Shown: in pieces, positions 1,525 to 13,396 of the stretch
How the letters are laid out: each line of letters starts with the position of its first letter
Position numbering within the stretch: the stretch's first letter is position 1
NCBI GenBank assembly: GCA_019683805.1
Contig: JADGHQ010000017.1
Location: 1-42,334 of the forward strand
Source: Thermoleophilaceae bacterium
GTDB lineage: Bacteria > Actinomycetota > Thermoleophilia > Solirubrobacterales > Thermoleophilaceae
Direction: 5' to 3'
DNA: 42,334 nt
The notes under the pieces: generated by a model
Told to the model about the DNA's origin: nothing
What the model saw: the letters and a program-made list of their open reading frames with translations, nothing else
Database searches by the model: none
Translations under genes and position numbers: made by a program

Positions 1525-1947
1525 CTACGCGAGCTCCCGCCGGAGCTCGACCATGCGCAGGACCGCGCGCGCGGCGTCCTCGCCCTGGTGGCGCTTGCCG
1601 CCGAGCCGGGCGAGCGCCTGGTCGCGGGTCGCGACGGTCAGCACCCCGAAGGAGCAGGGCACGCCGGTGTCGAGCGAGACGCGGGCGATCCCGGCCGCGG
1701 CCTGCGAGCAGACGTACTCGTAGTGGTCGGTCTCGCCGCGGATCACGGCGCCGAGGCAGGCGACGCCCGCGTAGCGGCCCGACACGGCGCAGTACCTCGC
1801 CGCCAGCGGCAGCTCGAACGCGCCCGGCACCTCGTGCACGACCACCTCGCCCTCGGCCGCCTCGAACACGCGGCGGGCGCCCTCGATGAGCCTGGCGGCG
1901 AGGTCCTCGTAGAACGTCCCGACCGCGATCGCGTACCGGTCAGCCAC
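1525..1947 (-). CDS. ribH: 6,7-dimethyl-8-ribityllumazine synthase
   Basis: A 140-aa lumazine synthase. It condenses 5-amino-6-ribitylaminouracil with 3,4-dihydroxy-2-butanone 4-phosphate, the penultimate riboflavin step, and family members assemble into pentamers or 60-mer capsids. Recognisable blocks are [16 protein letters not shown], the substrate-binding [15 protein letters not shown], and [20 protein letters not shown] with the conserved ETDH. Length is slightly short but within the family range. It overlaps the end of ribBA by 8 nt and abuts the threonine aldolase start, placing it fourth in the ribD-ribE-ribBA-ribH operon. Confidence 0.96.
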
Positions 1948-3256
1948 GCGGACGCTCCCGGGCCTCGTCCGGCTGGCGCGAGGCGCTCGCCTGGCGCTCG
2001 CGATCCTGGACGCGCTCGGAGTGGATCATCTCCTCGTCGAGGGCGAGCCCCTGGTGGTGGAGCATGTGCCCCAGCCGGTCCCGCTTGGCGCGCAGGTACG
2101 CGCGGTTGTGCTCGGTCGGCGGGTGCTGGATCGGGATCTGGTCGGTGACGCGCAGGCCGTAGCCCTCGAGGCCGACGATCTTCTTGGGGTTGTTCGTGAG
2201 CAGGCGCATCGAGGTGACGCCGAGGTCGACGAGGATCTGGGCGCCGATGCCGTAGTCGCGGAGATCCGCAGGCAGCCCGAGCTCGAGGTTCGCGTCGACG
2301 GTGTCGAGCCCCTGGTCCTGCAGGTTGTAGGCCTTGAGCTTGTTCAGGAGGCCGATGCCGCGCCCCTCCTGCGAGAGGTAGAGCAGCACGCCCTCGCCCT
2401 CGTCCTCGATCCGCCGGAGCGCGTCCTCGAGCTGCTGCCCGCAGTCGCAGCGCTGCGAGTGGAAGACGTCGCCGGTGAGGCACTCGGAGTGCACGCGCAC
2501 GAGCACGTCCTCCTTGCCCGCCACCTCGCCCTTGACGAGCGCGACGTGGTGCTTGCCGTCGACGAGCGAGCGGAAGCCGACCACCTCGAAGTCGCCGAAG
2601 TCGGTCGGCAGGCGCGTCTCGACGACGCGCTCGATCAGCTTGTCGTGGCGCCGGCGGTAGGCGATCAGGTCGGCGACCGTGATCATCTTCAGCCCGTGCC
2701 GGGCGCAGTAGCGCTCGAGGTCGGGCACGCGGGCCATCGTGCCGTCGTCGTTCATGATCTCGCAGATCACCCCGGCCGGGTAGAGGCCGGCGAGCCGCGC
2801 GAGGTCGACCGCGGCCTCGGTCTGGCCGGTGCGCTCGAGCACGCCGCCCGGCTTCGCCTTGAGCGGGAAGATGTGCCCGGGCTGGACGAGGTCCTCAGGC
2901 CGGCTCGAGGGGTCGATCGCGACCTGGATCGTGCGCGCGCGGTCGTGCGCCGAGATGCCGGTAGTCACGCCCTGCCGCGCCTCGATCGAGACGGTGAAGG
3001 CGGTCTGGAAGGGCGACTCGTTCTTGGCGGCCATCAGGTCGAGCCCGAGCTCGTCGCAGCGCTCGGGCGTGAGCGCGAGGCAGATCAGCCCGCGCCCCTC
3101 CTTGGCCATGAAGTTGATCGCCTCGGGGGTGACGAACTGGGCGGCCATCGTGAGGTCGCCCTCGTTCTCGCGGTCCTCGGCGTCGCAGACCACGACCATC
3201 CTCCCGGCGCGGATGTCCTCGAGCGCCTCCTCGATCGTGCTGAACGGCCCGCTCAT
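1940..3256 (-). CDS. ribBA: bifunctional 3,4-dihydroxy-2-butanone-4-phosphate synthase / GTP cyclohydrolase II
   Basis: A 438-aa fusion supplying both substrates of the riboflavin pathway. Residues about 1-205 are the DHBP synthase domain ([14 protein letters not shown] with acidic metal ligands, then [14 protein letters not shown] and [20 protein letters not shown]). Residues about 210-400 are the GTP cyclohydrolase II domain, with a zinc site in [18 protein letters not shown] and the motifs [13 protein letters not shown] and [13 protein letters not shown] charged tail of about 35 residues follows and is probably disordered. It overlaps ribE by 4 nt (ATGA) and ribH by 8 nt, indicating translational coupling. 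Confidence 0.97.
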
Positions 3257-3840
3257 GCGCGCACCGCGAGCTTCTCGACGTACTTGGCGAGCACATCCAC
3301 CTCCACGTTCACCAAGCTCCCGGGCTCCGCGAGCCCGAGCGTGGTCCTCTCGACTGTCTCCGGAATGAGCGACACGGTGAAGCTCTCGTCGTCGATCGCG
3401 GCGATCGTCAGCGAGACGCCGTCGACCGCCACCGATCCCTTCTCGACCATGTAGCGCAGAAGCCTCTCGGGGCAGGCTATGCGCACGAGCCGCGCGATGC
3501 CCTCCTGCGTGACCGATGCCACGGTTCCCGACCCGTCCACGTGGCCCTGCACGATGTGGCCGCCGAGGCGGTCGCCCGCGCGCAGCGGCAGCTCGAGGTT
3601 GACGGGGTCGCCGGGCGCGAGCGGCCCGAGCGAGGAGCGCCGCAGCGTCTCCGCCATCACGTCGGCGGCGAAGCGGTCCTCGCGCACCTCGACGGCGGTG
3701 AGGCAGACGCCGTTCACGGCGATCGAGTCCCCCACGGAGAGCTCCGCCGCGAGCGGCGTGGCGATCTCGATGCGGGCGCCGGCGCCCGAGCGCGAGGCGC
3801 TGCGCACGCTGCCAGTCCCCTGTACGAGCCCGGTGAACAC
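3253..3840 (-). CDS. ribE: riboflavin synthase, alpha subunit
   Basis: This enzyme dismutates two 6,7-dimethyl-8-ribityllumazine molecules to riboflavin. Two tandem lumazine-binding barrels are visible: the first starts [12 protein letters not shown] and contains [16 protein letters not shown]; the second contains [15 protein letters not shown] and [15 protein letters not shown] chose the GTG at 3840 because the family almost always begins MFTG and a GAGAG ribosome-binding site lies 8 nt upstream; GTG at 3849, adding three residues, is the alternative. The gene begins next to the ribD stop and overlaps ribBA by 4 nt. Confidence 0.95.
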
Positions 3841-3842
3841 GG

Positions 3843-4967
3843 TCACCACTCTCGCATGCGCGCCACTATCAGGACGTCGCCGTCGATCTCCGAGACCTCA
3901 GTGGCGAGCGCGCGCTGGGCGTCGGCGATCGCCTCGACGCCCTGGCCCTCGAGCGGGACGCGGGCGCGGCGGCCGCCCGCGACGAGCGGCGCGACGAACA
4001 CCCGCAGCTCGTCGATCTCGCCGGCGTCCCGGAAGGCGCCCGCGAGGTGCGACCCGCCCTCGAGCAGCAGCGACTGGACGCCGAGCTCGCCGAGCTGGGC
4101 GAGCGCGGACGCGACGCGCGCCGCCTCGTTCTCGCCGGTCGCCACGATCACCTCGGCGCCCGCGGCCTCGAGCTTCGAGACCGCGGCGCGCGAGGCCGCG
4201 CGCGAGCACACCACGGTGAGCGGCGCCTCGCGCGCGGAGGCGACGAGCCTGCAGTCCGCGGGCAGGCGCGCCTCGGAGTCGAACACCACGCGGCGGGGCT
4301 GCCGCTCGACGCCCTCGACGCGCGCGGTCAGCAACGGGTCGTCGACGAGCGCCGTGCCGATCCCCACCGCGACCGCGTCGGACTCCGCGCGCCAGCGGTG
4401 GGCGAGCGCCCGGCTCTCCTCGCTCGAGATCCACTTCGAGTCGCCCGCGGCGGTCGCGACCTTGCCGTCGAGCGTCATCGCGAACTTGAGCAGCACGAGC
4501 GGGCGGCCGCTGCGCGCGTGCTTGCGGAACGGCTGGTTGATGAGCCGCGCCGCGCGCGCCAGCTCGCCGTCCACCATGTCGACGCGGACGCCCTCGTCGC
4601 GCAGGATGCCGAGCCCGCGCCCGCTCGCCTTCTCGGTCGGGTCGTCGGACGCGACGACGACCCGGGCGATCCCGGCCTCGAGGATCGCGTCGGTGCAGGG
4701 CGGCGTCCGCCCGTGGTGGCAGCAGGGCTCGAGCGAGACGTAAAGGGTCGCGCCGGAGGGGTCCTCGGTGGCGCTCGCGAGCGCGACGCGCTCGGCGTGC
4801 GGGGCGCCCGCGGCGGCGTGGAACCCCTCGCCGATAACGCGCCCGTCCTTCACGAGCACGGCGCCGACGAGCGGGTTGGGGCTCGTCTTCCCACGCGCCC
4901 GGGCGGCGAGCTCGATCGCCCGCTCGAGATGTCGCGCATCGCGCTCCGTCGCCGTCAGCTGCGTCAT
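3843..4967 (-). CDS. ribD: bifunctional diaminohydroxyphosphoribosylaminopyrimidine deaminase / reductase
   Basis: About 374 aa, first gene of the riboflavin operon. The N-terminal deaminase domain carries a cytidine-deaminase-type zinc site ([10 protein letters not shown], then [13 protein letters not shown]), preceded by the typical [12 protein letters not shown]. The C-terminal half is the RibD reductase domain, with [17 protein letters not shown] and [13 protein letters not shown] preferred ATG 4967 because it gives the usual start about 10 residues before the first helix. A GTG at 5006 would add a basic, proline-rich stretch that homologues do not need. Neither start has a good Shine-Dalgarno sequence. 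No FMN riboswitch fits in the short upstream region; instead there is a palindrome at 5009-5026. Confidence 0.94.
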
Positions 4968-5056: not shown

Positions 5057-6790
5057 ATGCCACGACGCATGCGCGCCGCCGCGTGGCCCGCGTACGCCGC
5101 GCTCGCCGCGGTCGTGCTCGCCGGCCTCTACCTCCGGGTCCGCCACAACGGATACGGGCTCCCCTACGTCTACAACATCGACGAGGGCTCGCACTTCACC
5201 AACCGCGCGGTGGCGATGTTCGGCGGCAGCGCCGACCCCGGCTACTTCCAGAACCCCTCCGCGTTCACGTACCTCGTGCACCTCGCGCTGCGCTTCCGCT
5301 ACGGGCACGGCTGGCCGTTCGGGAGCTTCGACGGCGTGGTGCGCCTCTACGGGAGCGGGGACCCGAGCCCGATCTACGAGCTCGCGCGCACGCTCGCGGC
5401 CCTGGTCTGCGTCGCGGGCGTGCTCGGCGTCTACTGGGTCGGGCGGCGGCTCTTCGGCGCGCGCGAGGGGCTCGTGGCCGCCGCGATCCTCTCGTTCGCG
5501 TTCCTCCCGGTGACCTACTCGCGGATCGCGGTGACCGACGTGGGCACGCTCCTGCCCGTGGCGCTCTCGCTCTACGGGGCGGTGCGGATCCGCGAGCGCG
5601 GCGAGCTGCGCCACTACGCGCTTGCGGGCGCGGGCGCCGGGCTCGCGATCGGCTTCAAGTACACGGCGGGACTCGTGCTGCTCCCGCTGCTGATCGCCGT
5701 CGCCGTGCGGGTGCGCACCGACGGCGCGGCGGCCCCGCTCAAGGGCCTCGCGGCGGGGCTCGCCGCGACGGTCGCGGCGTTCTTCGTGACGACCCCGTAC
5801 TTCTTCATCGACTTCTCGGACGCGCTGCGCCAGCTCCGCGGGCAGGCGACCACGGCGGGAGACTTCCCCAAGGTCGGCCAGGCGCACGACAACGGCTTCG
5901 TCTACTACCTCTGGAGCCTCACCTGGGGGCTCGGCTGGGGCGCTCTCGCCGCGGCGCTCGGCGGCGCCGTGCTGCTAGCGCGCCGCGACCCGATCCGCGC
6001 GCTCCTGCTCGTCGCGTTCCCGCTCGCGCTGTTCGCATACCTGTCGGTGCAGTCGCGCTTCTTCGGGCGGTGGCTCTTGCCGGCCTACCCCGTGCTGGCG
6101 CTGCTCGCGGGCTACGCGCTCGTGCAGGCGGTGGGCGCCGTGCGCGCGCTCCGGCCGGGCGGCCCCGCCGCGGCGGCGGCGCTCGCGCTGCTCACCGCGC
6201 TGGTGCTCGTGCAGCCAATCGCCGCCGACATCCGCACCGCCAGCATCCTGGGGCGGACCGACACCCGCCAGCTCGCGCGCGACTTCCTGGTGCGCCGCTT
6301 CCCGCCGAGCCTGCGCATCGTGATCGAGCCGGCCGTGCCGCCGCGCTACTACCGGCGCGCCCGCCCCGGCCACGAGGCGAGCCCGCGGGCCAAGCAGTTC
6401 GTGCGCGGCTTCATCCGCGACATCCGCGAGACGCGCGTGGACTACGTGACCACGCTCAGCCCCGCGACGATCGACAGGTACCGTCGAGCCGGCTTCTGCC
6501 TCGTGATGACGATGAGCGTCATCCGCGGCAGGGCGGAGAATGACGCGCTGGCGCCCGCGCTCGCCTACTACCGGCGGCTCGAGCGGGAGTCGCGCGTGAT
6601 CTACCACGTGAGCCCCTACGACCCAGGGGTCGAGCACTTGAGGTTCAACTTCGACCACTCGTACGACTACTACCCGACCGCGTTCGCGCGACCCGGGCCC
6701 GAGGTCACGCTCTACCGGCTGAGCCGCTGCAGGCAGGGCTACGGGCCAGTGCCGAAGGGCACGGGCACACCCACGGGGCTAGCGCAGTGA
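5057..6790 (+). CDS. GT39/ArnT-like integral membrane glycosyltransferase (first of tandem pair)
   Basis: A 577-aa polytopic protein. After a basic start and one membrane helix comes the GT-C signature loop VYNIDEGSHFTNRAVAMFGG, with the acidic pair (DE) expected to be catalytic, followed by DPGYFQNPSAFTYLVH. Roughly ten hydrophobic segments extend to about residue 390. The last ~180 residues are soluble and end with FNFDHSYDYYP-AFARPGP. Family members transfer a sugar from a polyprenyl-phosphate donor to a lipid, glycan or protein acceptor outside the membrane; donor and acceptor are unknown here. It overlaps the next gene, an obvious paralogue, by 4 nt. The ATG is supported by the TAGCTT box. 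Confidence 0.82.
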   Translation: MPRRMRAAAWPAYAALAAVVLAGLYLRVRHNGYGLPYVYNIDEGSHFTNRAVAMFGGSADPGYFQNPSAFTYLVHLALRFRYGHGWPFGSFDGVVRLYGSGDPSPIYELARTLAALVCVAGVLGVYWVGRRLFGAREGLVAAAILSFAFLPVTYSRIAVTDVGTLLPVALSLYGAVRIRERGELRHYALAGAGAGLAIGFKYTAGLVLLPLLIAVAVRVRTDGAAAPLKGLAAGLAATVAAFFVTTPYFFIDFSDALRQLRGQATTAGDFPKVGQAHDNGFVYYLWSLTWGLGWGALAAALGGAVLLARRDPIRALLLVAFPLALFAYLSVQSRFFGRWLLPAYPVLALLAGYALVQAVGAVRALRPGGPAAAAALALLTALVLVQPIAADIRTASILGRTDTRQLARDFLVRRFPPSLRIVIEPAVPPRYYRRARPGHEASPRAKQFVRGFIRDIRETRVDYVTTLSPATIDRYRRAGFCLVMTMSVIRGRAENDALAPALAYYRRLERESRVIYHVSPYDPGVEHLRFNFDHSYDYYPTAFARPGPEVTLYRLSRCRQGYGPVPKGTGTPTGLAQ

Positions 6791-8475
6791 TCGCCGTGCG
6801 CCCCCGCACCGACCGCGCCGCCAGGCCGCGCCTGCCGCGCCCGCGACGGCCCGGGCCGCTCGGGCTTGCGGTCGGCGGCGTCGTGCTGGGCGCCCTCGTG
6901 CTGCGGCTCTGGTCGATCCGCCACGGCATGCCCTGGGCGTTCAACTACGACGAGGAGCACCACTTCGTGCCGCGCGCCGTGCAGATGCTCGGCGGCTCGC
7001 TCGACCCCGGCTACTTCGAGAACCCGCCGGCGCTCACTTACCTGCTCTTCGCCGTCTTCAAGCTGCGCTTCCACGCAGGGTTCCCGTTCGGCTCGAGCGG
7101 CTTCGCGCGGGCGTTCCGGAACGACCCCGAGGCCGCGTTCGTGACCGCCCGCGCGGTGGTCGCGCTGATCGGCACTCTCGTCGCCTGGCTCGTGTGGCGG
7201 GCCGGCCGGCGCTTCTACGACGCCCGCGTCGGGCTGCTCGCCGCCGCCCTCGTCGCCTGCGCCTTCCTGCCGGTCTTCTACTCCCACCAGGCGCTGAACG
7301 ACGTCGTCACGCTCGCGCCGCTGACCGTGGGGCTCGTGGGCTGCCTCCTCGTCTACGAGCGCGGGCGGCCGCTCGACTACGCCCTCGCGGGCGGCGCGAT
7401 CGGCGTCGCGACCGCGACCAAGTACACAGCGGGCGCGATGCTCGTCACGCTCGCCGCCGCCGCGCTGCTGCGGCTGCGCGACCGCCGTGACGCCCTCCCC
7501 GCGCTCGCTCGCGGCACGGCGCTCGCCGCCGCCTGCTGCCTCGCCGGCTTCCTCGCCCTCAACCCGTACGCGCTCGCCGACCTCTCGACCTTCAAGGCGC
7601 AGCTCCACGGCCAGTCGGAGACGGCCGGCGGGCTCGCGAAGCTCGGCCAGGACGACGTGCCGGGCTGGCTCTACTACCTCTGGACGCTCACCTGGGGCTT
7701 CGGCTGGGTTCCGCTGCTCGCCGCCGTCGGCGGCACGGCGGCGGCGCTGCGCTCCGACTGGCGGCGCGCGCTCCTGCTCGTGTCCTTCCCCGCCGTGCTC
7801 TTCGTCTACATGGGCGCCCAGGCCCGCTTCTTCGCGCGCTGGCTGCTCCCCGCCTACCCCGCGCTCGCGATCCTCGCGGCCTACGGGATGGTCCGGCTCG
7901 TCGACTCGGCGCCCCTGCGCAGGCGGGCGCGGCCCGCGCTCCTGCTCGCCGCGGCCGCGGTCGCGCTCGTGGCGCAGGGGCTCGTGTCGAGCGTGCGGGT
8001 CGACAGCGTCCTCGCCCGCGCCGACACGCGCACGCTGGCGCGCGAGTGGATGAGGCGCAACGTGCCCGCGGGCGCGGGGCTCGTCGCCGAGCCGCTCTTC
8101 CCTGACGGCTTCTGGACCAGGGGCGGGCGGCGCGCCCCGGACCGCTACCGGCTGTTCCCGATCGAGCCGCCCTTCCAGGGCTACGAGAAGAAGCTCACCC
8201 CCGCCCTCGTCGACCGCTACCGCGCGCAGGGCTACTGCTGGGTCGTCACCGGCAGCTACCAACGCGACCGCGGCATGAAGGCCGGCCTTCCCGGCGCGCG
8301 CGCCTACTACGCGCGGCTCGCGGCCGAGTCGAGCGTGGCGGCGCGCTTCTCGCCCTGGTACGCGGACCGCGACCCCGTCGAGTTCAACTTCGACTGGTCG
8401 TTCGACTACTACCCGCGCGCCTACGCTCGGCCCGGCCCGCTGATCGAGGTCCGCCGGCTGACGGACTGCGGCTGA
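6787..8475 (+). CDS. GT39/ArnT-like integral membrane glycosyltransferase (second of tandem pair)
   Basis: A 562-aa paralogue of the preceding gene with the same plan. The shared blocks are FNYDEEHHFVPRAVQMLGG, DPGYFENPPALTYLL, YYLWTLTWGFGW, ARFFARWLLPAYPALAILAAY, and a C-terminal soluble domain ending FNFDWSFDYYPRAYARPGP. Conservation of the acidic loop suggests both copies are active; differences in the C-terminal domain suggest different acceptors or donors (inference). The GTG start at 6787 overlaps the stop of the first copy (GTGA), so the two are translated together. It converges with the next gene across a strong hairpin. Confidence 0.82.
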   Translation: MIAVRPRTDRAARPRLPRPRRPGPLGLAVGGVVLGALVLRLWSIRHGMPWAFNYDEEHHFVPRAVQMLGGSLDPGYFENPPALTYLLFAVFKLRFHAGFPFGSSGFARAFRNDPEAAFVTARAVVALIGTLVAWLVWRAGRRFYDARVGLLAAALVACAFLPVFYSHQALNDVVTLAPLTVGLVGCLLVYERGRPLDYALAGGAIGVATATKYTAGAMLVTLAAAALLRLRDRRDALPALARGTALAAACCLAGFLALNPYALADLSTFKAQLHGQSETAGGLAKLGQDDVPGWLYYLWTLTWGFGWVPLLAAVGGTAAALRSDWRRALLLVSFPAVLFVYMGAQARFFARWLLPAYPALAILAAYGMVRLVDSAPLRRRARPALLLAAAAVALVAQGLVSSVRVDSVLARADTRTLAREWMRRNVPAGAGLVAEPLFPDGFWTRGGRRAPDRYRLFPIEPPFQGYEKKLTPALVDRYRAQGYCWVVTGSYQRDRGMKAGLPGARAYYARLAAESSVAARFSPWYADRDPVEFNFDWSFDYYPRAYARPGPLIEVRRLTDCG

Positions 8476-8495
8476 CGCGGGCGCGGGCGCGGACG

Positions 8496-8542
8496 AGGTG
8501 TCGCGATTCGTGCATCACGTACGTGCGCAAGTCGCGACACCT
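8496..8542. terminator. 47-nt hairpin between convergent genes
   Basis: AGGTGTCGCGA at 8496-8506 is the exact reverse complement of TCGCGACACCT at 8532-8542, and pairing partly continues inward. It sits in the 106-bp gap between converging glycosyltransferase genes, so it could end transcripts from both sides. Neither side has a T-run, so a factor-independent terminator is not certain; it could instead be one copy of a dispersed palindromic repeat. Confidence 0.5.
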
Positions 8543-8581
8543 GACGCGGCGTGGACGCTCCCCCAGGAGGCGGGGCCTGCC

Positions 8582-10150
8582 TCAGCCTCCCTGGCCGGGG
8601 CAGCGCGCGTACACGCGCCACATGCTGTTGCCCGCGGTGAAGCCGAACGTCGACAGTGGGTAGTTCGACCACCACTTGCGCGCCGAGCTCTGGCTCACGC
8701 CCGTCGTGGAGCGCGCCGCGGCGGGCTCGAAGTTGAAGGTGTTGCCCACGAGCAGCACGCCGCGGCTGGGCGGCAGCGCCTGGTTGATCGAGGCCTCGAG
8801 GTCGTGCTTCGAGAGGCCCGTCTCCCACTCCACCACGGGGATAGCCGAGTGGGTCGGCAGGGTGATCGGCCGGCAGCTCGCGAGCAGCCGCGCGACCGAC
8901 GGCTCCTGCAGGATCGCCTTGAGCTGCCGGTGCTGGCGCTTCACGAACAGCGTCTGGCCGTTGAGCTTGCGCAGGTCGTTGACGAGCGACGGCGCGCGCC
9001 AGCCGACGACGAGCAGCGAGAGGGCCGCCACCGCGACCGCCGCCTTGCGCGCGCGCCCGGGATCCATCGCGGTCCAGCCGGCGAGCGCCACGCCGACCCC
9101 GAGGTTGAGCAGCAGCGACGGGATCACGAGATAGCGCGGGATCACCGACAGCCCGGCGATCGCGATCATCACGAACACCGCCAGCCCTACCGCCGTGAGC
9201 GCGATCGGCAGGGCGGCGCGGCGGCGCAGCAGGTAGGCGGCGAGCAGCACGCCGAGGCCGCCCGCCACGTCGTTGACGATCTTCTCGTTGGCGCCGAGGT
9301 AGTCGGGGATCAGCCCGATCGCCTCGCGGGCCGTGCGGTTGCGGCCGAACTGGCCGGCCACCTCGCGCGTCGAGGTGAGCGAGTGCAGGGGATGGCCCGT
9401 GACCGCCCAGTCCGAGGCGACCCACAGCAGCGGCGGCGCCGCGACGAGCGCCCCGTAGCGGAGGAGCTGCGCGGGCGTCAGCACCGGCCGCAGCCACAGC
9501 AGGTAGAGCCCGGACAGGAGCCACGCCTCCGGGCGCAGCAGGCCGGCGAGCGCCAGCAGCGCGAGCACCGGCAGCCCGCGCCGCGGGCGCCTCAGCTCGA
9601 GCAGCGCGGCCCCGAACACGAGCAGCAGGAAGGGCACGTCGACCATCCCGCGCAGCGCGTAGAAGAGCAGGTCGATGCGGGTGAGCACGAACGCCGTCCC
9701 GATCGCCGCGACCAGCGTGCCGAGCAGGTGCTGCGTGAAGCGGAAGAGCACCACGAGCAGCCCGAGGAAGGAGGCGATCGTGAGCAGCACGAGCAGCCGG
9801 TCGGCGGCGGGGCCGAAGAAGGAGAGCAGGGCGGACACGAGCTCCCAAAGCGGGTGCGGCGTGGGCGTGCGGAAGACGTCGTAATCCGGCAGCCGCCCGT
9901 GCGCGAGCTCCCTGCCCCAGACCAGCGAGTAGTAGCTGTCGTAGTTGGGGTAGGTCGGCCGCGCGAGGAAGGCCCCGAGGGCGACCACGGAGGCGAGCGC
10001 GAGCAGGCGGATGCCGTTGCGGCGGGTCGCGAGCGCCTCCGCGCGGGCGGCCAGGCGCGACTCGCGGCCGGCGCCGGCGGTGGGCGGCGCGAGCACGCCC
10101 GCGGGCACGGGTCGAGGCGCGCCGCGGCTGATCGGTCTGCTCAGGAACAC
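8582..10150 (-). CDS. polytopic GT-C-type membrane glycosyltransferase
   Basis: About 522 aa, unlike the tandem pair but of the same general GT-C architecture. A cytoplasmic basic/proline-rich N-terminus of about 50 residues is followed by a first membrane helix and an acidic loop YPNYDSYYSLVWGRELAHG, then DVFRTPTPHPLWEL. About nine further hydrophobic segments follow, and a C-terminal soluble region ends with GFTAGNSMWRVYARCPG. These features fit polyprenyl-phosphate-dependent mannosyl- or arabinosyltransferases; the substrate is not identifiable. The start is uncertain: GTG 10150 gives the longest reading, with further in-frame GTG codons about 40-55 nt inside. It is transcribed divergently from the GT2 gene, and a TATTCT at 10217-10222 is a possible -10. 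Confidence 0.72.
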   Translation of the reverse strand: MFLSRPISRGAPRPVPAGVLAPPTAGAGRESRLAARAEALATRRNGIRLLALASVVALGAFLARPTYPNYDSYYSLVWGRELAHGRLPDYDVFRTPTPHPLWELVSALLSFFGPAADRLLVLLTIASFLGLLVVLFRFTQHLLGTLVAAIGTAFVLTRIDLLFYALRGMVDVPFLLLVFGAALLELRRPRRGLPVLALLALAGLLRPEAWLLSGLYLLWLRPVLTPAQLLRYGALVAAPPLLWVASDWAVTGHPLHSLTSTREVAGQFGRNRTAREAIGLIPDYLGANEKIVNDVAGGLGVLLAAYLLRRRAALPIALTAVGLAVFVMIAIAGLSVIPRYLVIPSLLLNLGVGVALAGWTAMDPGRARKAAVAVAALSLLVVGWRAPSLVNDLRKLNGQTLFVKRQHRQLKAILQEPSVARLLASCRPITLPTHSAIPVVEWETGLSKHDLEASINQALPPSRGVLLVGNTFNFEPAAARSTTGVSQSSARKWWSNYPLSTFGFTAGNSMWRVYARCPGQGG

Positions 10151-10332
10151 GGCGGCTTGAGAGTCGGGCCCGCGGCAAGGCGAGCTGCTGCTGCGCGCGG
10201 CGCCGCGGAAGTGGGCAGAATAACAGCGACATCCGCCGCGGGCGCCGGGGCTCCTACGGCCGCACGGGAGGGCCGACGACCACACGCCCCGAGCCGCCCG
10301 CGAACCGCGCTTTCGGCCTCCGACCGCTCCGC

Positions 10333-10338
10333 TAGCCT
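10333..10338 (+). promoter_or_regulatory. candidate -10 box (TAGCCT) of the GT2-methyltransferase-flippase operon
   Basis: TAGCCT lies 16 nt before ATG 10355, in the 204-bp divergent gap 10151-10354. The spacing is longer than at most starts in this window, so a short leader is expected. Apart from this box and the TATTCT facing the other gene, I see only GC-rich sequence in the gap. Confidence 0.35.
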
Positions 10339-10354
10339 GAACCGCCGCCCACAC

Positions 10355-11389
10355 ATGAAGCTCATCATCCAGATCCCCTGCTGGAACGAGGAGGAGCAGC
10401 TGCCGGCGACGCTCGCCGACCTCCCGCGCGAGGTGCCGGGCGTCGACACCGTCGAGTGGCTCGTCATCGACGACGGCTCGACCGACCGCACCGTCGAGGT
10501 GGCGCGCGAGCACGGCGTCGACCACATCGTGCGGCTCACCAACAACAAGGGGCTGGCCGCCGCGTGGCAGGCGGGGCTCGACGCCGCCCTCAAGCTCGGC
10601 GCCGACATCATCGTCAACACCGACGCCGACAACCAGTACAAGGCCGCCGACATCCCCAAGCTGGTGGCGCCGATCATCGCGGGCGAGGCCGACATGGTGA
10701 TCGGCGACCGCCAGGTCGAGACGATCGAGCACTTCTCGGCGCTCAAGATCAAGCTCCAGCACCTCGGCAGCGCGGTCGTGCGCCGCGCATCCGGCACCCA
10801 CATCGCCGACACGACCTCGGGATTCCGCGCCTACAACCGCGAGGCGGCGCTCCAGATGCAGGTCGTCTCGAAGTTCACCTACACGCTCGAGACGATCATC
10901 CAGGCGGGGAAGATGACGGTCGCCGTCGACCACGTCCCGATCGGGACCAACCCGAAGATGCGCGAGTCGCGCCTGTTCCCCTCGATGTGGGCGTACGTGC
11001 GGCGCAACGGGATCTCGATCTTCCGCATCTACTCGCTGTACGAGCCGCTGCGTGTGTTCATGACGGCCGCGGCGATCGTCGGCATCGCGGCCGCCGCGAT
11101 CTGGATCCGCTTCCTGGTCGCGTACTTCGGCGGCGAGGGCGCTGGCCACGTGCAGTCGCTGATCCTCGGCGCGGTGCTCTTCATCGCGGCGGTGCAGCTC
11201 GCGGCGCTCGGGGTGATCGGCGACATCCTCGCCGGCAGCCGTGTGCTCAGCCAGCGCATCCTCGAGCGCGTGCGGCGGGTGGAGCTCGAGCTCGGGATCG
11301 AGCCGTCCCACTACGAGCCCGGCAAGCGCGCCGGCGAGACGGAGGCCGCCGAGCAGTCGACCGAGGAACGAGAGGCGCTCAAGCTGTGA
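10355..11389 (+). CDS. family 2 glycosyltransferase, polyprenyl-phosphate sugar synthase type
   Basis: A 344-aa protein. The GT-A domain fills residues about 1-225: IIQIPCWNEEEQLPATL, the nucleotide-binding LVIDDGSTDRT, and the metal-binding DADNQYKAADIPKL in place of a DXD. Two membrane helices follow at about 235-260 and 270-295, then a charged tail. This layout matches DPM1-like enzymes and bactoprenol glycosyltransferases, which load a sugar from an NDP-sugar onto undecaprenyl phosphate. Such a product is the donor that the neighbouring GT-C enzymes would need, which is the main reason to read 5057-13396 as one pathway (inference). Its TGA overlaps the next start (GTGA). Confidence 0.88.
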   Translation: MKLIIQIPCWNEEEQLPATLADLPREVPGVDTVEWLVIDDGSTDRTVEVAREHGVDHIVRLTNNKGLAAAWQAGLDAALKLGADIIVNTDADNQYKAADIPKLVAPIIAGEADMVIGDRQVETIEHFSALKIKLQHLGSAVVRRASGTHIADTTSGFRAYNREAALQMQVVSKFTYTLETIIQAGKMTVAVDHVPIGTNPKMRESRLFPSMWAYVRRNGISIFRIYSLYEPLRVFMTAAAIVGIAAAAIWIRFLVAYFGGEGAGHVQSLILGAVLFIAAVQLAALGVIGDILAGSRVLSQRILERVRRVELELGIEPSHYEPGKRAGETEAAEQSTEEREALKL

Positions 11390-12006
11390 CGACCGCCCGG
11401 CCCGCAACCGTCCCGACCGGCAACACCTACGACAAGTACGGCTCGACTAACCCGATCGTGCGCCGCCTGATGGCGGGCTTCCACGCCTCGCTCGACGAGC
11501 TGTGGGAGAAGGCGGGGCCGCGCTCGGTGCTCGACGTCGGCTGCGGCGAGGGCGTGCTCACCTGCGAGTGGGCGGAGCGCCTCGGCGACGGGCGCGTCGT
11601 CGGCATCGACCTCGACGACCCCAAGCTCGCGGCGGAGTGGGAGGAGCGCCAGCGGCCGAACCTCGAGTACCGCTGCGCCGACGCCACCTCGCTCGAGTTC
11701 GCCGACGGCGAGTTCGACATGGCGGCCGCGATCGAGGTGCTCGAGCACGTGCCCGAGCCCGCGCGCACGCTCTCCGAGATGGCGCGCGTGGCGAGCCGCT
11801 GGCTACTCGTGTCGGTGCCGCGCGAGCCGCTCTGGCGGGCGCTCAACATGGCGCGCGGCGCCTACCTGCGCGACCTCGGCAACACCCCCGGCCACATCAA
11901 CCACTGGTCCAAGCGGTCGTTCGTCGAGCTCCTCTCCCGCTACGGAACGGTCGAGGAGGTCCGCTCGCCGTTCCCCTGGACCATGCTGCTTGTCCGCGTC
12001 GGCTAG
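11386..12006 (+). CDS. class I SAM-dependent methyltransferase
   Basis: A 206-aa protein with the Rossmann motifs SVLDVGCGEGVLTCEWAE (motif I), VVGIDLDDPKLA, CADATSLEFADGEFD and AAAIEVLEHVPEPARTL. These are typical of methyltransferase-11/UbiE-like enzymes acting on small molecules or lipid-linked sugars. The GTG start overlaps the GT2 stop by 4 nt and its own end overlaps the flippase by 17 nt, so it is in the middle of a coupled three-gene operon. A role in methylating (capping or decorating) the lipid-linked glycan is plausible from context only. Confidence 0.87.
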   Translation: MTTARPATVPTGNTYDKYGSTNPIVRRLMAGFHASLDELWEKAGPRSVLDVGCGEGVLTCEWAERLGDGRVVGIDLDDPKLAAEWEERQRPNLEYRCADATSLEFADGEFDMAAAIEVLEHVPEPARTLSEMARVASRWLLVSVPREPLWRALNMARGAYLRDLGNTPGHINHWSKRSFVELLSRYGTVEEVRSPFPWTMLLVRVG

Positions 12007-13396
12007 CACCGGCTCCCGGGCGCCCGCCGCGGCGGGCGGCGGCGGCTCCGCCACGCGCTCCTACGGCCGCGGCGCCGGCGTCCTGGCAGCGGGGATCGGG
12101 GTCACGGGCCTCGTCACCTACTCGTACTTCTCGCTCGCGAGCCACGCGCTGAGCGCCCACGACTACGGCGAGATCTCGCTCCTGTGGTCGGCGATCTTCA
12201 TCGTCGTGTCGGTGCTCTACCGGCCGGTCGAGCAGCTCCTCTCGCGCACGATCTCGGACCGCCACGCACGCGGGCTCGGCGGCACCTCGCACCTGCGCGT
12301 CGCCGCCACCATCCAGCTCGCGCTCGCCGCGCTCTTCGCCGTGGCGGCGCTGATCCTGCGGCCGACGCTCGAGGACGACCTGCTCGGCGGCTCCGCGACC
12401 CTCTACTGGGTCCTCTTCAGCGCGGTGCTCGCGTACGCGGCGAGCTACTTCGCGCGCGGGTTCCTCGCGGGCCACCGGCGCTTCGGGCTCTACGGGGGGC
12501 TCGTGCTGATGGAGGCGACCTCGCGGTTCGCGTTCGCGCTCGCCGTGACGGTCGGGCTCGCCTCCGGCCAGGGAGTCGTGGCCGCCGGCATGGCCGCCGC
12601 CCCGATCGTGTCGCTCGCGGTCGTGCCGTGGGCGCTCGCGCGCAGGCTGAGGCGCCCCGACCCGCCGCCCGCTCCCCATGACAGCCGCACCGCCGAGACG
12701 CTCGACTCCGCGGCGGAGCCCACCGAGACGGGCGGCGCCGGCGCCGAGCCCGAGCTCACGCTCTCGCACGGCGCGAGCTTCGCGGTCGCGGTGCTCGTCA
12801 TCATGGTGTGCGAGCAGACGTTCCTGAACGCGGGCCCGCTGCTCGTGAAGGCGGTCGACGGCGACGGGGGCGCGGCGATCGCAGGGTTCGTGTTCAACGT
12901 GCTGCTGATCGCGCGCGCGCCGCTGCAGCTCTTCCAAGCGGTGCAGACCTCGATCCTCCCCCACCTCACGCGCCTCGCCGCAAGCGGCGAGGCGGACCCC
13001 TTCCGGCGCAGCGTGCAGGTGACGGTGCGCGCGATCGCCGCCTTCGCGGCGCTCGTGGCGCTCGGCTTCCTCGTGCTCGGCCCGTTCGCGATGAAGCTCC
13101 TGTTCGGGGGCGACACGAGCTACGCGCGCGGCGGCCTCGTGGTCGTCTCGATCGGGATGGGGCTCTACCTCTCGGCCGCGACGCTCAACCAGGCGGCGCT
13201 CGCGGCGGGGCGGGCGCGGCGCGCGGCGATCTCGTGGGCGTGCAGCGCGGCGGCGTTCGTCGGCTTCCTGCTAACCCCCGGCTGGGACGACCGCGTGCTG
13301 CAGGTCGAGGTGGGCTACTGCGCCGCGGCGGGGCTGCTCTGCGCGCTGCTCTACGCGCTCTACCGCGGCGGCACGCCCGCGCGCGCGCAGGCCTGA
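11990..13396 (+). CDS. oligosaccharide flippase / polysaccharide biosynthesis membrane protein (MATE/Wzx-like)
   Basis: 468 aa with about 12-14 hydrophobic segments and no soluble domain. The N-terminal half contains AHDYGEISLLWSAIFIVVSV and a DFARGFL-like segment (YFARGFLAGHRRFGLYGG), a pattern common in polysaccharide-export flippases. A hydrophilic linker rich in Pro, Glu and Thr (about residues 225-260) separates the two halves. The likely job is to move a lipid-linked saccharide across the membrane. The only start that keeps the whole first helix is TTG 11990, which lies inside the methyltransferase gene. It runs convergently into the zinc-ribbon gene with only 7 bp between them and no visible terminator. 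Confidence 0.82.
   Translation: MSASASTGSRAPAAAGGGGSATRSYGRGAGVLAAGIGVTGLVTYSYFSLASHALSAHDYGEISLLWSAIFIVVSVLYRPVEQLLSRTISDRHARGLGGTSHLRVAATIQLALAALFAVAALILRPTLEDDLLGGSATLYWVLFSAVLAYAASYFARGFLAGHRRFGLYGGLVLMEATSRFAFALAVTVGLASGQGVVAAGMAAAPIVSLAVVPWALARRLRRPDPPPAPHDSRTAETLDSAAEPTETGGAGAEPELTLSHGASFAVAVLVIMVCEQTFLNAGPLLVKAVDGDGGAAIAGFVFNVLLIARAPLQLFQAVQTSILPHLTRLAASGEADPFRRSVQVTVRAIAAFAALVALGFLVLGPFAMKLLFGGDTSYARGGLVVVSIGMGLYLSAATLNQAALAAGRARRAAISWACSAAAFVGFLLTPGWDDRVLQVEVGYCAAAGLLCALLYALYRGGTPARAQA

What the first reader, a model, noticed from the sequence alone, without database searches (positions are those of the whole stretch)
5057..13396. Undescribed lipid-linked glycan assembly locus with tandem GT39 paralogues
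The block encodes three polytopic GT-C enzymes, a polyprenyl-phosphate-type GT2, a methyltransferase and a flippase, the latter three translationally coupled. Together they could charge a lipid carrier, build or decorate a saccharide, flip it and transfer it. The two GT39 proteins share a C-terminal soluble domain ending FNFD-S-DYYP-A-ARPGP that I cannot match to a known acceptor-binding domain. No sugar-nucleotide synthesis or polymerase genes are present, so the glycan may be a short modification.
Basis: partly seen in the sequence, partly recalled or inferred. Interest (0 to 1): 0.5.

Follow-up and report, generated by a model that had tools for sequence, protein, structure and literature searches.

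The report
Conserved sugar-export and attachment gene cluster
A group of soil actinobacteria keeps a six-gene cluster that most likely loads a sugar onto a membrane lipid, possibly methylates it, flips it across the membrane and attaches it to something on the cell surface; this is a new variant of a known kind of machine whose sugar and target are still unknown.

Summary
The block holds six genes: two tandem GT39-like GT-C proteins, a third GT-C protein on the other strand, and a coupled GT2–methyltransferase–flippase trio. Within the order, 93 of 99 sampled genomes with a GT39 match also carry the GT2 orthologue; in 74 of 92 with printed coordinates the two lie within 10 kb. Predicted structures put both modelled GT-C proteins in the ArnT/STT3/PMT superfamily. 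GT2 matches polyprenyl-phosphate sugar synthases. FLIP is Wzx/PST-type by profile comparison.

[quoted passage not shown] GT2 makes a polyprenyl-phosphate monosaccharide, FLIP moves it, the GT-Cs transfer it to an unknown acceptor. 'Lipid-linked glycan assembly' is only partly supported.

One feature I did not find in print: the methyltransferase family pairs with GT2 genes beyond the order, and there the flippase slot often holds an unrelated PF03706 (MprF-type) protein. Of 47 methyltransferase loci, 25 have the Wzx-type flippase, 10 a PF03706-like protein (8 over the Pfam cut-off), none both, 12 neither.

The parts
5057..6790 (+). GT39a: GT-C glycosyltransferase, PMT_2/PMT (GT39-like), 577 aa, with C-terminal soluble domain
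   Evidence: Pfam PMT_2 55.5 bits; model pLDDT 91.2; VIA-align Z 28.1 to AglB 3waj and 27.4 to ArnT 5f15
6787..8475 (+). GT39b: tandem paralogue of GT39a, 562 aa, GTG start overlapping the GT39a stop
   Evidence: Pfam PMT_2 46.5 bits; separate old clade in tree; overlap read
8582..10108 (-). GTCc: third GT-C protein, 508 aa, no Pfam hit by itself
   Evidence: model pLDDT 85.4; Z 21.5 to ArnT 5f15; 7 of 19 alignment members hit PMT_2 at E<=0.05
10355..11389 (+). GT2: polyprenyl-phosphate sugar synthase type (DPMS/GtrB-like), two C-terminal hydrophobic segments
   Evidence: profile hits DPMS 2.6e-17 and sll0501 about 1e-13; two hydrophobic segments
11386..12006 (+). MT: class I SAM-dependent methyltransferase of a GT2-linked family
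   Evidence: Pfam Methyltransf_11 77.2 bits; alignment A5; neighbourhoods
11990..13396 (+). FLIP: Wzx/PST-type (MOP superfamily) putative flippase; start codon uncertain
   Evidence: hhalign to PF01943 proteins 91%, E 1.1e-6 over 338 columns, with controls; PF01943 27.2 bits in the window, orthologues in G127 and G130 over the 28.2 cut-off

Best explanation
[quoted passage not shown] Step 1 (inferred from family): GT2 transfers one sugar from a nucleotide donor to polyprenyl phosphate on the cytoplasmic side. Step 2 (inferred from gene pairing only): MT methylates that lipid-linked sugar or its precursor. Step 3 (inferred from homology): FLIP, a Wzx-type protein, moves the lipid-linked sugar across the membrane. 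Step 4 (inferred from fold and the conserved DE motif): GT39a, GT39b and GTCc, three different GT-C enzymes, use it outside the membrane on one or more acceptors, probably a cell-wall polymer or a secreted protein. Shown here: the families, folds, coupling and conserved neighbourhood. Not shown: the sugar, the methylation target, flipping, and the acceptor.
For: The GT2 profile matches solved DPMS and, through its membrane segments as well, sll0501 (GtrB by recall). Both modelled GT-C proteins match ArnT, STT3 and PMT structures. FLIP matches PF01943 proteins at 91% (E 1.1e-6); PST–MurJ as positive control gave 97.6%, and FLIP against GT39, GTCc and PF03706 profiles 0.8% or less. GT2, MT and FLIP are consecutive in 25 of 47 MT loci, and a GT2-type gene is next to MT in 36 of 47. 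93 of 99 order-level genomes with GT39 have the GT2 orthologue; 74 of 92 have them within 10 kb. Characterised or proposed systems with the same part list: GacI/GacK/GacL, GacK being Wzx-type (PMC8035078, passages); polyprenyl-P-ribose synthase + MATE-family flippase + GT-C (PMC11127046, abstract and passages); AglD/AglR/AglS (PMC3871713, passages).
Against: No enzyme activity, sugar or acceptor is known for any gene in this family. 52 of 145 order-level genomes with the GT2 have no GT39 match at E<=1e-10 (one search scored only the top three candidates per genome), so GT2–MT–FLIP does not depend on the GT39 proteins. Some GT2 loci lack MT (L056, L058, L059, L063) and one locus of the FLIP group lacks FLIP (L064). 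In 14 of 92 genomes GT39 and GT2 are on different contigs, in 4 on one contig farther apart. The window's own FLIP is below the PF01943 cut-off (27.2 against 28.2 bits), and only 1 of 24 FLIP proteins hits PF01943 in hmmscan at E<=0.01. Wzx-type proteins usually carry pyrophosphate-linked oligosaccharides (general knowledge). Outside the class the GT2 beside MT is mostly not the orthologue (25–31% identical; L136 51%).
Confidence: 0.7

Rival explanations
1. A Wzx-type lipid-linked oligosaccharide pathway: the flippase moves a short pyrophosphate-linked glycan built elsewhere, and the GT-C proteins act as oligosaccharide transferases or extend it. This is.
For: FLIP belongs to the PST/Wzx family by profile; the GT39a model also aligns with the oligosaccharyltransferases AglB, PglB and STT3.
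Against: No initiating phosphoglycosyltransferase, second cytoplasmic glycosyltransferase or polymerase in the block (the rest of the genome was not searched for them). GT2 is of the DPMS/GtrB type that makes monosaccharide donors. Wzx- and MATE-type flippases are already proposed for monosaccharide donors.
Confidence: 0.12
2. Protein O-glycosylation: the GT39 paralogues stand in for the actinobacterial Pmt, which seems to be missing here, and glycosylate secreted proteins.
For: PMT/PMT_2 domains over cut-off; the PMT-type DE motif (recalled) is invariant in 35 rows. PMT_4TMC, a mark of classical Pmt, was found in 0 of 16 genomes including the own one, while the C. glutamicum control rings. 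A secreted-looking protein (judged by eye) adjoins GT39 in two separate lineages.
Against: Strong homologues of that protein (E<=1e-90) occur in only 14 of 99 GT39 genomes. PMT_2 enzymes also glycosylate teichoic acids and cell-wall polysaccharides in Gram-positives (PMC8035078), so the domain does not fix the acceptor. This rival differs from the best explanation only in the acceptor.
Confidence: 0.25
3. The neighbourhood is historical: the genes sit together by chromosome-wide gene-order conservation near the rib operon and do not act as one pathway.
For: Housekeeping neighbours are conserved too; 21 of 24 GT39 stretches have rib genes, while 15 of 24 have GT2.
Against: GT2–MT–FLIP stays together in stretches without GT39 (L068, L069, L071, L072), and GT2-type genes recur beside MT in other classes where no rib match was seen among the genes listed next to MT. 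All six genes are of one functional theme.
Confidence: 0.1

Closest known systems
GacI/GacJ/GacK/GacL of Streptococcus pyogenes (GlcNAc side chain of group A carbohydrate)
   Same: GT-A lipid-sugar synthase, Wzx-type flippase, PMT_2-type GT-C transferase (PMC8035078, passages)
   Different: GT2 has its own hydrophobic segments and no small partner gene lies in the block; a methyltransferase between GT2 and flippase; three GT-C proteins; sugar and acceptor unknown
AglD/AglR/AglS of Haloferax volcanii (terminal mannose of the N-glycan)
   Same: DolP-sugar synthase, AglR for translocation, AglS for transfer; a methyltransferase (AglP) also acts in that pathway (PMC3871713, passages)
   Different: Archaeal; AglP's target is in the tetrasaccharide branch (recalled) and it is not described there as acting with AglD; orthology was not tested
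Citrobacter youngae O1/O2 pentofuranose three-component system (GT136)
   Same: Lipid-sugar synthase, MATE-family flippase, GT-C (PMC11127046, abstract and passages)
   Different: Ribosyl donor from PRPP; different synthase and GT-C families; no methyltransferase described in the three-component module in the passages seen
Gtr systems (GtrA/GtrB/Gtr*) of Shigella and Salmonella
   Same: GtrB-type synthase and GT-C
   Different: The flippase there is GtrA; here it is Wzx-like
Actinobacterial Ppm1/Pmt protein O-mannosylation
   Same: Polyprenyl-phosphate sugar synthase feeding a GT39-type enzyme (PMC5882110, abstract in listing)
   Different: PMT_4TMC found in 0 of 16 genomes searched; flippase and methyltransferase in the cluster

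Membership tests
Multi-component (three-component) transmembrane glycosylation system | Membrane-linked GT-A polyprenyl-phosphate sugar synthase | tested here: met
   PF00535 over cut-off; DPMS and sll0501 structures hit; two C-terminal hydrophobic segments. Activity not tested.
Multi-component (three-component) transmembrane glycosylation system | Flippase of GtrA, Wzx or MATE type | tested here: met
   Family level only: profile match to PF01943 proteins with controls; orthologues in G127 and G130 over the Pfam cut-off, window protein 1 bit below. Flipping not tested.
Multi-component (three-component) transmembrane glycosylation system | GT-C fold transferase | tested here: met
   Predicted models: GT39a Z 27.4 and GTCc Z 21.5 to ArnT 5f15; GT39b by sequence only.
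Multi-component (three-component) transmembrane glycosylation system | Donor is a polyprenyl-phosphate monosaccharide added to an extracytoplasmic acceptor | not testable with these tools
   Needs lipid and glycan chemistry.
GT39 / PMT_2 family | PMT or PMT_2 domain over curated cut-off | tested here: met
   GT39a PMT_2 and PMT, GT39b PMT_2. GTCc by itself has no hit.
Classical protein O-mannosyltransferase (Pmt) | C-terminal PMT_4TMC domain (PF16192) | tested here: not met
   0 of 16 genomes incl. own; C. glutamicum control rings.
Wzx/Wzy oligosaccharide pathway | Initiating phosphoglycosyltransferase and polymerase alongside the flippase | tested here: inconclusive
   Not among the six genes of the block; the rest of the genome was not searched for them.
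MurJ lipid II flippase | Profile similarity to MurJ | tested here: not met
   hhalign FLIP–MurJ 2.4%, E 0.019; weak sub-threshold Pfam MurJ hits in 2 of 24 FLIP proteins; the genome has two separate MurJ genes.
PF03706 (MprF-type) flippase | Profile similarity to PF03706 | tested here: not met
   hhalign FLIP–PF03706 0.6%: the two candidate flippases are unrelated by this test.
S-layer glycosyltransferase AglJ (TIGR04182) | NCBIfam equivalog cut-off 325 bits | tested here: not met
   GT2's best NCBIfam hit, 103 bits.

The most novel reading that the evidence does not exclude
GT2, MT and flippase form an actinobacterial module that exports a methylated polyprenyl-phosphate sugar: the methyl group is put on the lipid-linked donor before flipping, and the flippase recognises it. 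The flippase position is held by one of two unrelated families, Wzx-type in Solirubrobacterales and PF03706 (MprF-type) in other lineages. This would be gene-exchange evidence that bacterial PF03706 proteins can be polyprenyl-phosphate-sugar flippases, as the authors of PMC5898192 proposed for COG0392 from archaeal gene context (passages).
Probability: 0.3. Interest if true: 0.6.

Novelty: new variant of a known kind. Interest (0 to 1): 0.4.

Why it matters
Three searches for glycosylation in Solirubrobacter, Thermoleophilia and Solirubrobacterales listed nothing on the subject (in one search the ten listed papers did not contain 'Thermoleophilia'). If right, the cluster names the lipid-sugar synthase, flippase and transferases of one widely kept surface modification there. 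The exchange of Wzx-type and PF03706 proteins beside GT2–methyltransferase pairs gives a testable handle on which proteins flip polyprenyl-phosphate sugars, a step for which PMC11127046 (passages) says direct evidence has not been shown for the proteins it discusses.

Tried and rejected
Tried without result: phmmer of GT39a against PDB (one chance hit, E 0.31) and its profile (viral fusion proteins, judged chance, plus a weak PMT hit, E 0.058). The GTCc profile gave only implausible hits at E 0.055 or worse; the FLIP profile gave none. NCBIfam gave no hit over its cut-off among those shown. A paper search for a methylated lipid-linked sugar donor listed three papers, none on this by title and abstract; one search was off target.

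Considered and rejected: FLIP as MurJ; GT2 as AglJ; chance neighbourhood. The secreted protein beside GT39 as a universal acceptor was rejected: at E<=1e-15 it is in 28 of 99 GT39 genomes and 5 of 52 GT2-only genomes, at E<=1e-90 in 14 of 99 and 1 of 52 (own count).

Rows dropped or adjusted; six of 99 GT39 genomes lack the GT2 orthologue and one of the other 93 had no printed GT2 coordinate; for G154 and G308 a lower-ranking GT39 copy near GT2 was used (72 of 92 with best copies only); 15 of the 18 out-of-class MT hits were fetched (G442, G688 and G749 were not), and the gene caller missed the MT of L140 and L144, leaving 13 in the 47. The other 34 were mostly gathered around GT39 or GT2 hits, so GT2–MT adjacency is partly ascertained there; among the 13, GT2-type genes are next to MT in 5, two to four genes away in 5 and not seen in 3, PF03706-like proteins lie within two genes in 7, and FLIP in none. 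The PF03706 profile was seeded with neighbours from these loci; by Pfam itself 8 of the 10 are over cut-off, L145 is below (23.5 against 33.4 bits) and L073 has no hit. Of the two missed loci, the candidate near MT in L144 passes (34.4 bits) and that in L140 has no hit. In one search several reference frames were wrongly cut; one search repeats it with 9 PST and 7 MurJ rows. The bootstrap had not settled.
Full report
What is there. The window lies in a 2.56-Mb draft genome (G000, contig C69); the four named loci found by GT39a are Thermoleophilaceae and Solirubrobacterales MAGs. The block 5057–13396 has six called genes. GT39a and GT39b overlap by four bases, GT2 and MT by four, and FLIP overlaps the end of MT if its TTG start is right. 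GTCc is read from the other strand. On the left is the riboflavin operon (ribD and ribBA confirmed; ribE and ribH recognised by sequence); on the right a zinc-ribbon protein, rsmB, fmt, def and priA (zinc ribbon, rsmB and priA; fmt and def recognised by sequence).

What the genes are. GT39a and GT39b carry PMT_2 over its cut-off, and all 35 family members aligned keep D42–E43 and H46–F47 in the first loop; the DE pair is the PMT-type catalytic motif (recalled). AlphaFold models GT39a with mean pLDDT 91.2. Foldseek finds ALG12, STT3, ArnT and ALG9 (best E 1.7e-8), and VIA-align gives Z 28.1 to AglB 3waj (446 aligned, rmsd 5.7) and Z 27.4 to ArnT 5f15 (440 aligned, rmsd 5.9). GTCc has no Pfam hit, but its model (pLDDT 85.4) aligns with ArnT 5f15 at Z 21.5 (415 aligned, rmsd 4.9), and 7 of 19 alignment members hit PMT_2 at E<=0.05. 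GT2 aligns with dolichol-phosphate mannose synthase (2.6e-17) and, through its two C-terminal hydrophobic segments, with sll0501, called GtrB by recall (about 1e-13). MT is a class I SAM-dependent methyltransferase. FLIP is the weakest assignment. By itself it gives only a sub-threshold MurJ hit and 27.2 bits for PF01943 against a cut-off of 28.2, but the orthologues in G127 and G130 pass that cut-off; in hmmscan only 1 of 24 FLIP proteins hits PF01943. Profile against profile it matches nine PF01943 proteins of related genomes with 91% probability (E 1.1e-6, 338 columns). The known PF01943–MurJ relation scored 97.6% in the same test, and FLIP against GT39, GTCc and PF03706 0.8% or less.

Is it conserved? 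Matches to GT39a at E<=1e-10 are in 143 of 399 class genomes, 44 of them outside the order and mostly weak (the first look scored three candidates per genome). GT2 orthologues at E<=1e-75 are in 155 of 399. Within the own family and order, 99 genomes have GT39, 145 have GT2 and 93 have both. Of 92 with printed coordinates, 74 have them within 10 kb, 4 lie farther apart on one contig and 14 on different contigs (72 if only best copies are used; many genomes are drafts). Gene order was read in 45 stretches. Of 24 stretches fetched around GT39, 15 also hold GT2 and 21 hold rib genes; some contigs end early. The tandem GT39a–GT39b pair is in 8 of these 24 plus the window. A tree puts 17 GT39a rows and 18 GT39b-plus-single-copy rows on either side of a fully supported branch (the root is for drawing only). 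The duplication is therefore probably older than the genera of family f1, and both copies keep the catalytic motif, which suggests different acceptors or linkages. Three genomes of genus g23 in family f3 (L005, L039, L046) carry both copies, and these group with the f1 rows rather than with the other f3 rows in both halves of the tree, which suggests transfer.

The methyltransferase tells more. A profile of MT finds relatives at E<=1e-35 in 31 of 396 genomes across the phylum, 18 of them outside the class. Reading neighbourhoods and scanning with profiles gave 47 MT loci. A GT2-type gene is next to MT in 36, two to four genes away in 6, and not seen within five genes in 5. FLIP is next to MT in 25. 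In 10 others a PF03706-like protein lies within two genes. No locus has both and 12 have neither. Of the 10, Pfam puts 8 over its cut-off, L145 below it, and L073 has no hit. Among the 13 out-of-class loci alone, GT2-type genes are adjacent in 5 and two to four genes away in 5, PF03706-like proteins lie within two genes in 7, and FLIP in none; their GT2 is mostly not the orthologue (25–31% identical to the window's, L136 51%), so what persists is a GT2-type gene with MT, not one GT2 lineage. PF03706 genes number 71 in 16 close relatives, about four per genome, so one within two genes by chance would be rare; this density was not measured in the out-of-class genomes. On the MT tree the FLIP-associated rows form one group of 26 rows with a single exception (99/96; bootstrap not settled), while PF03706 association is spread over surrounding lineages. 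PF03706 includes the flippase half of MprF, and the authors of PMC5898192 proposed from gene context in archaea that members of COG0392 are flippases (abstract and passages). Two unrelated candidate flippases taking turns beside GT2–MT pairs is the pattern expected if both move the product of the pair.

How it most likely works. GT2 loads a monosaccharide onto polyprenyl phosphate; MT methylates the sugar (least certain step); FLIP turns the lipid-sugar to the outer face; the three GT-C enzymes transfer it to acceptors. Systems with this part list are known. The review PMC8035078 (passages read) describes GacI, the Wzx-type GacK and the PMT_2-type GacL. [quoted passage not shown] PMC3871713 (passages) describes AglD, AglR and AglS. 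In the passages seen, none has a methyltransferase gene between the synthase and the flippase.

What is against it. Nothing biochemical is known for this family. 52 order-level genomes have GT2 without a GT39 match, four GT2 loci lack MT (L056, L058, L059, L063), and one locus of the FLIP group (L064) lacks FLIP. The acceptor is unknown. Classical Pmt (PF16192) was found in 0 of 16 genomes searched while the C. glutamicum control rings, which leaves room for the GT39 pair as protein glycosyltransferases. A secreted-looking protein (by eye; no Pfam hits) adjoins GT39 in genus g23 (G053, G316, G364) and family f4 (G127, G130, G172, G382). Strong homologues (E<=1e-90) are in 14 of 99 GT39 genomes and 1 of 52 GT2-only genomes (own count from the printed places), so it is at most a local acceptor.

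It is an alpha/beta segment after the last membrane helix (residues about 403–555). Whole-chain alignments with ArnT, AglB and STT3 run to residue 557–559, as expected if it is the usual periplasmic domain of these enzymes. In sequence it is narrow: 4 of 246 phylum genomes at E<=1e-8 (own, G011, G017, G442). It was not folded alone, so a new acceptor-binding role is not excluded.

Verdict. A real, conserved system of a known kind that I did not find described; unusual are the methyltransferase in the core and the exchange of flippase families.

Noticed in passing
window 1525–4967 and 21 of 24 GT39 stretches: Riboflavin genes flank the GT39 genes across the order, also in stretches without GT2–MT–FLIP; no functional link is known.
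   Followed up: partly
L046 14211–15719; L152 6627–8069; L067 10881–12242; G000:C129:983–2407: A roughly 450–500-aa secreted-looking protein without Pfam hits adjoins GT39 in genus g23 and family f4; the window's genome has a homologue on another contig. Candidate acceptor or chance.
   Followed up: partly
L003 8845–9081, L037 10908–11174, L040 13504–13788: A small protein of 78–94 aa with a recurring 'W-L-QP--VR-SYV' motif sits beside GT39b or GT2 in three genomes of the own family; the L003 copy has no Pfam hit.
   Followed up: no
L045, L047, L052, L074: GT39 or GT2 lies beside a recurring set: a PF03706 protein (for L045, L074), two large membrane-type proteins (one with a sub-threshold PMT_2 hit in L045, one similar to GTCc at 76 bits in L074) and a flavin amine-oxidoreductase-like protein, suggesting a wider envelope glycan locus.
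   Followed up: partly
G353:C350:4799–6664: Two GT2 copies facing each other and overlapping by about 20 bases; may be an assembly palindrome in this draft genome.
   Followed up: no
G000:C94:2522–3817 and G000:C113:4195–5493: The window's genome has two near full-length MurJ genes.
   Followed up: no
L063 9574–12039: In one order-level genome the GT2 orthologue is followed by a Mur ligase gene instead of MT and FLIP.
   Followed up: no
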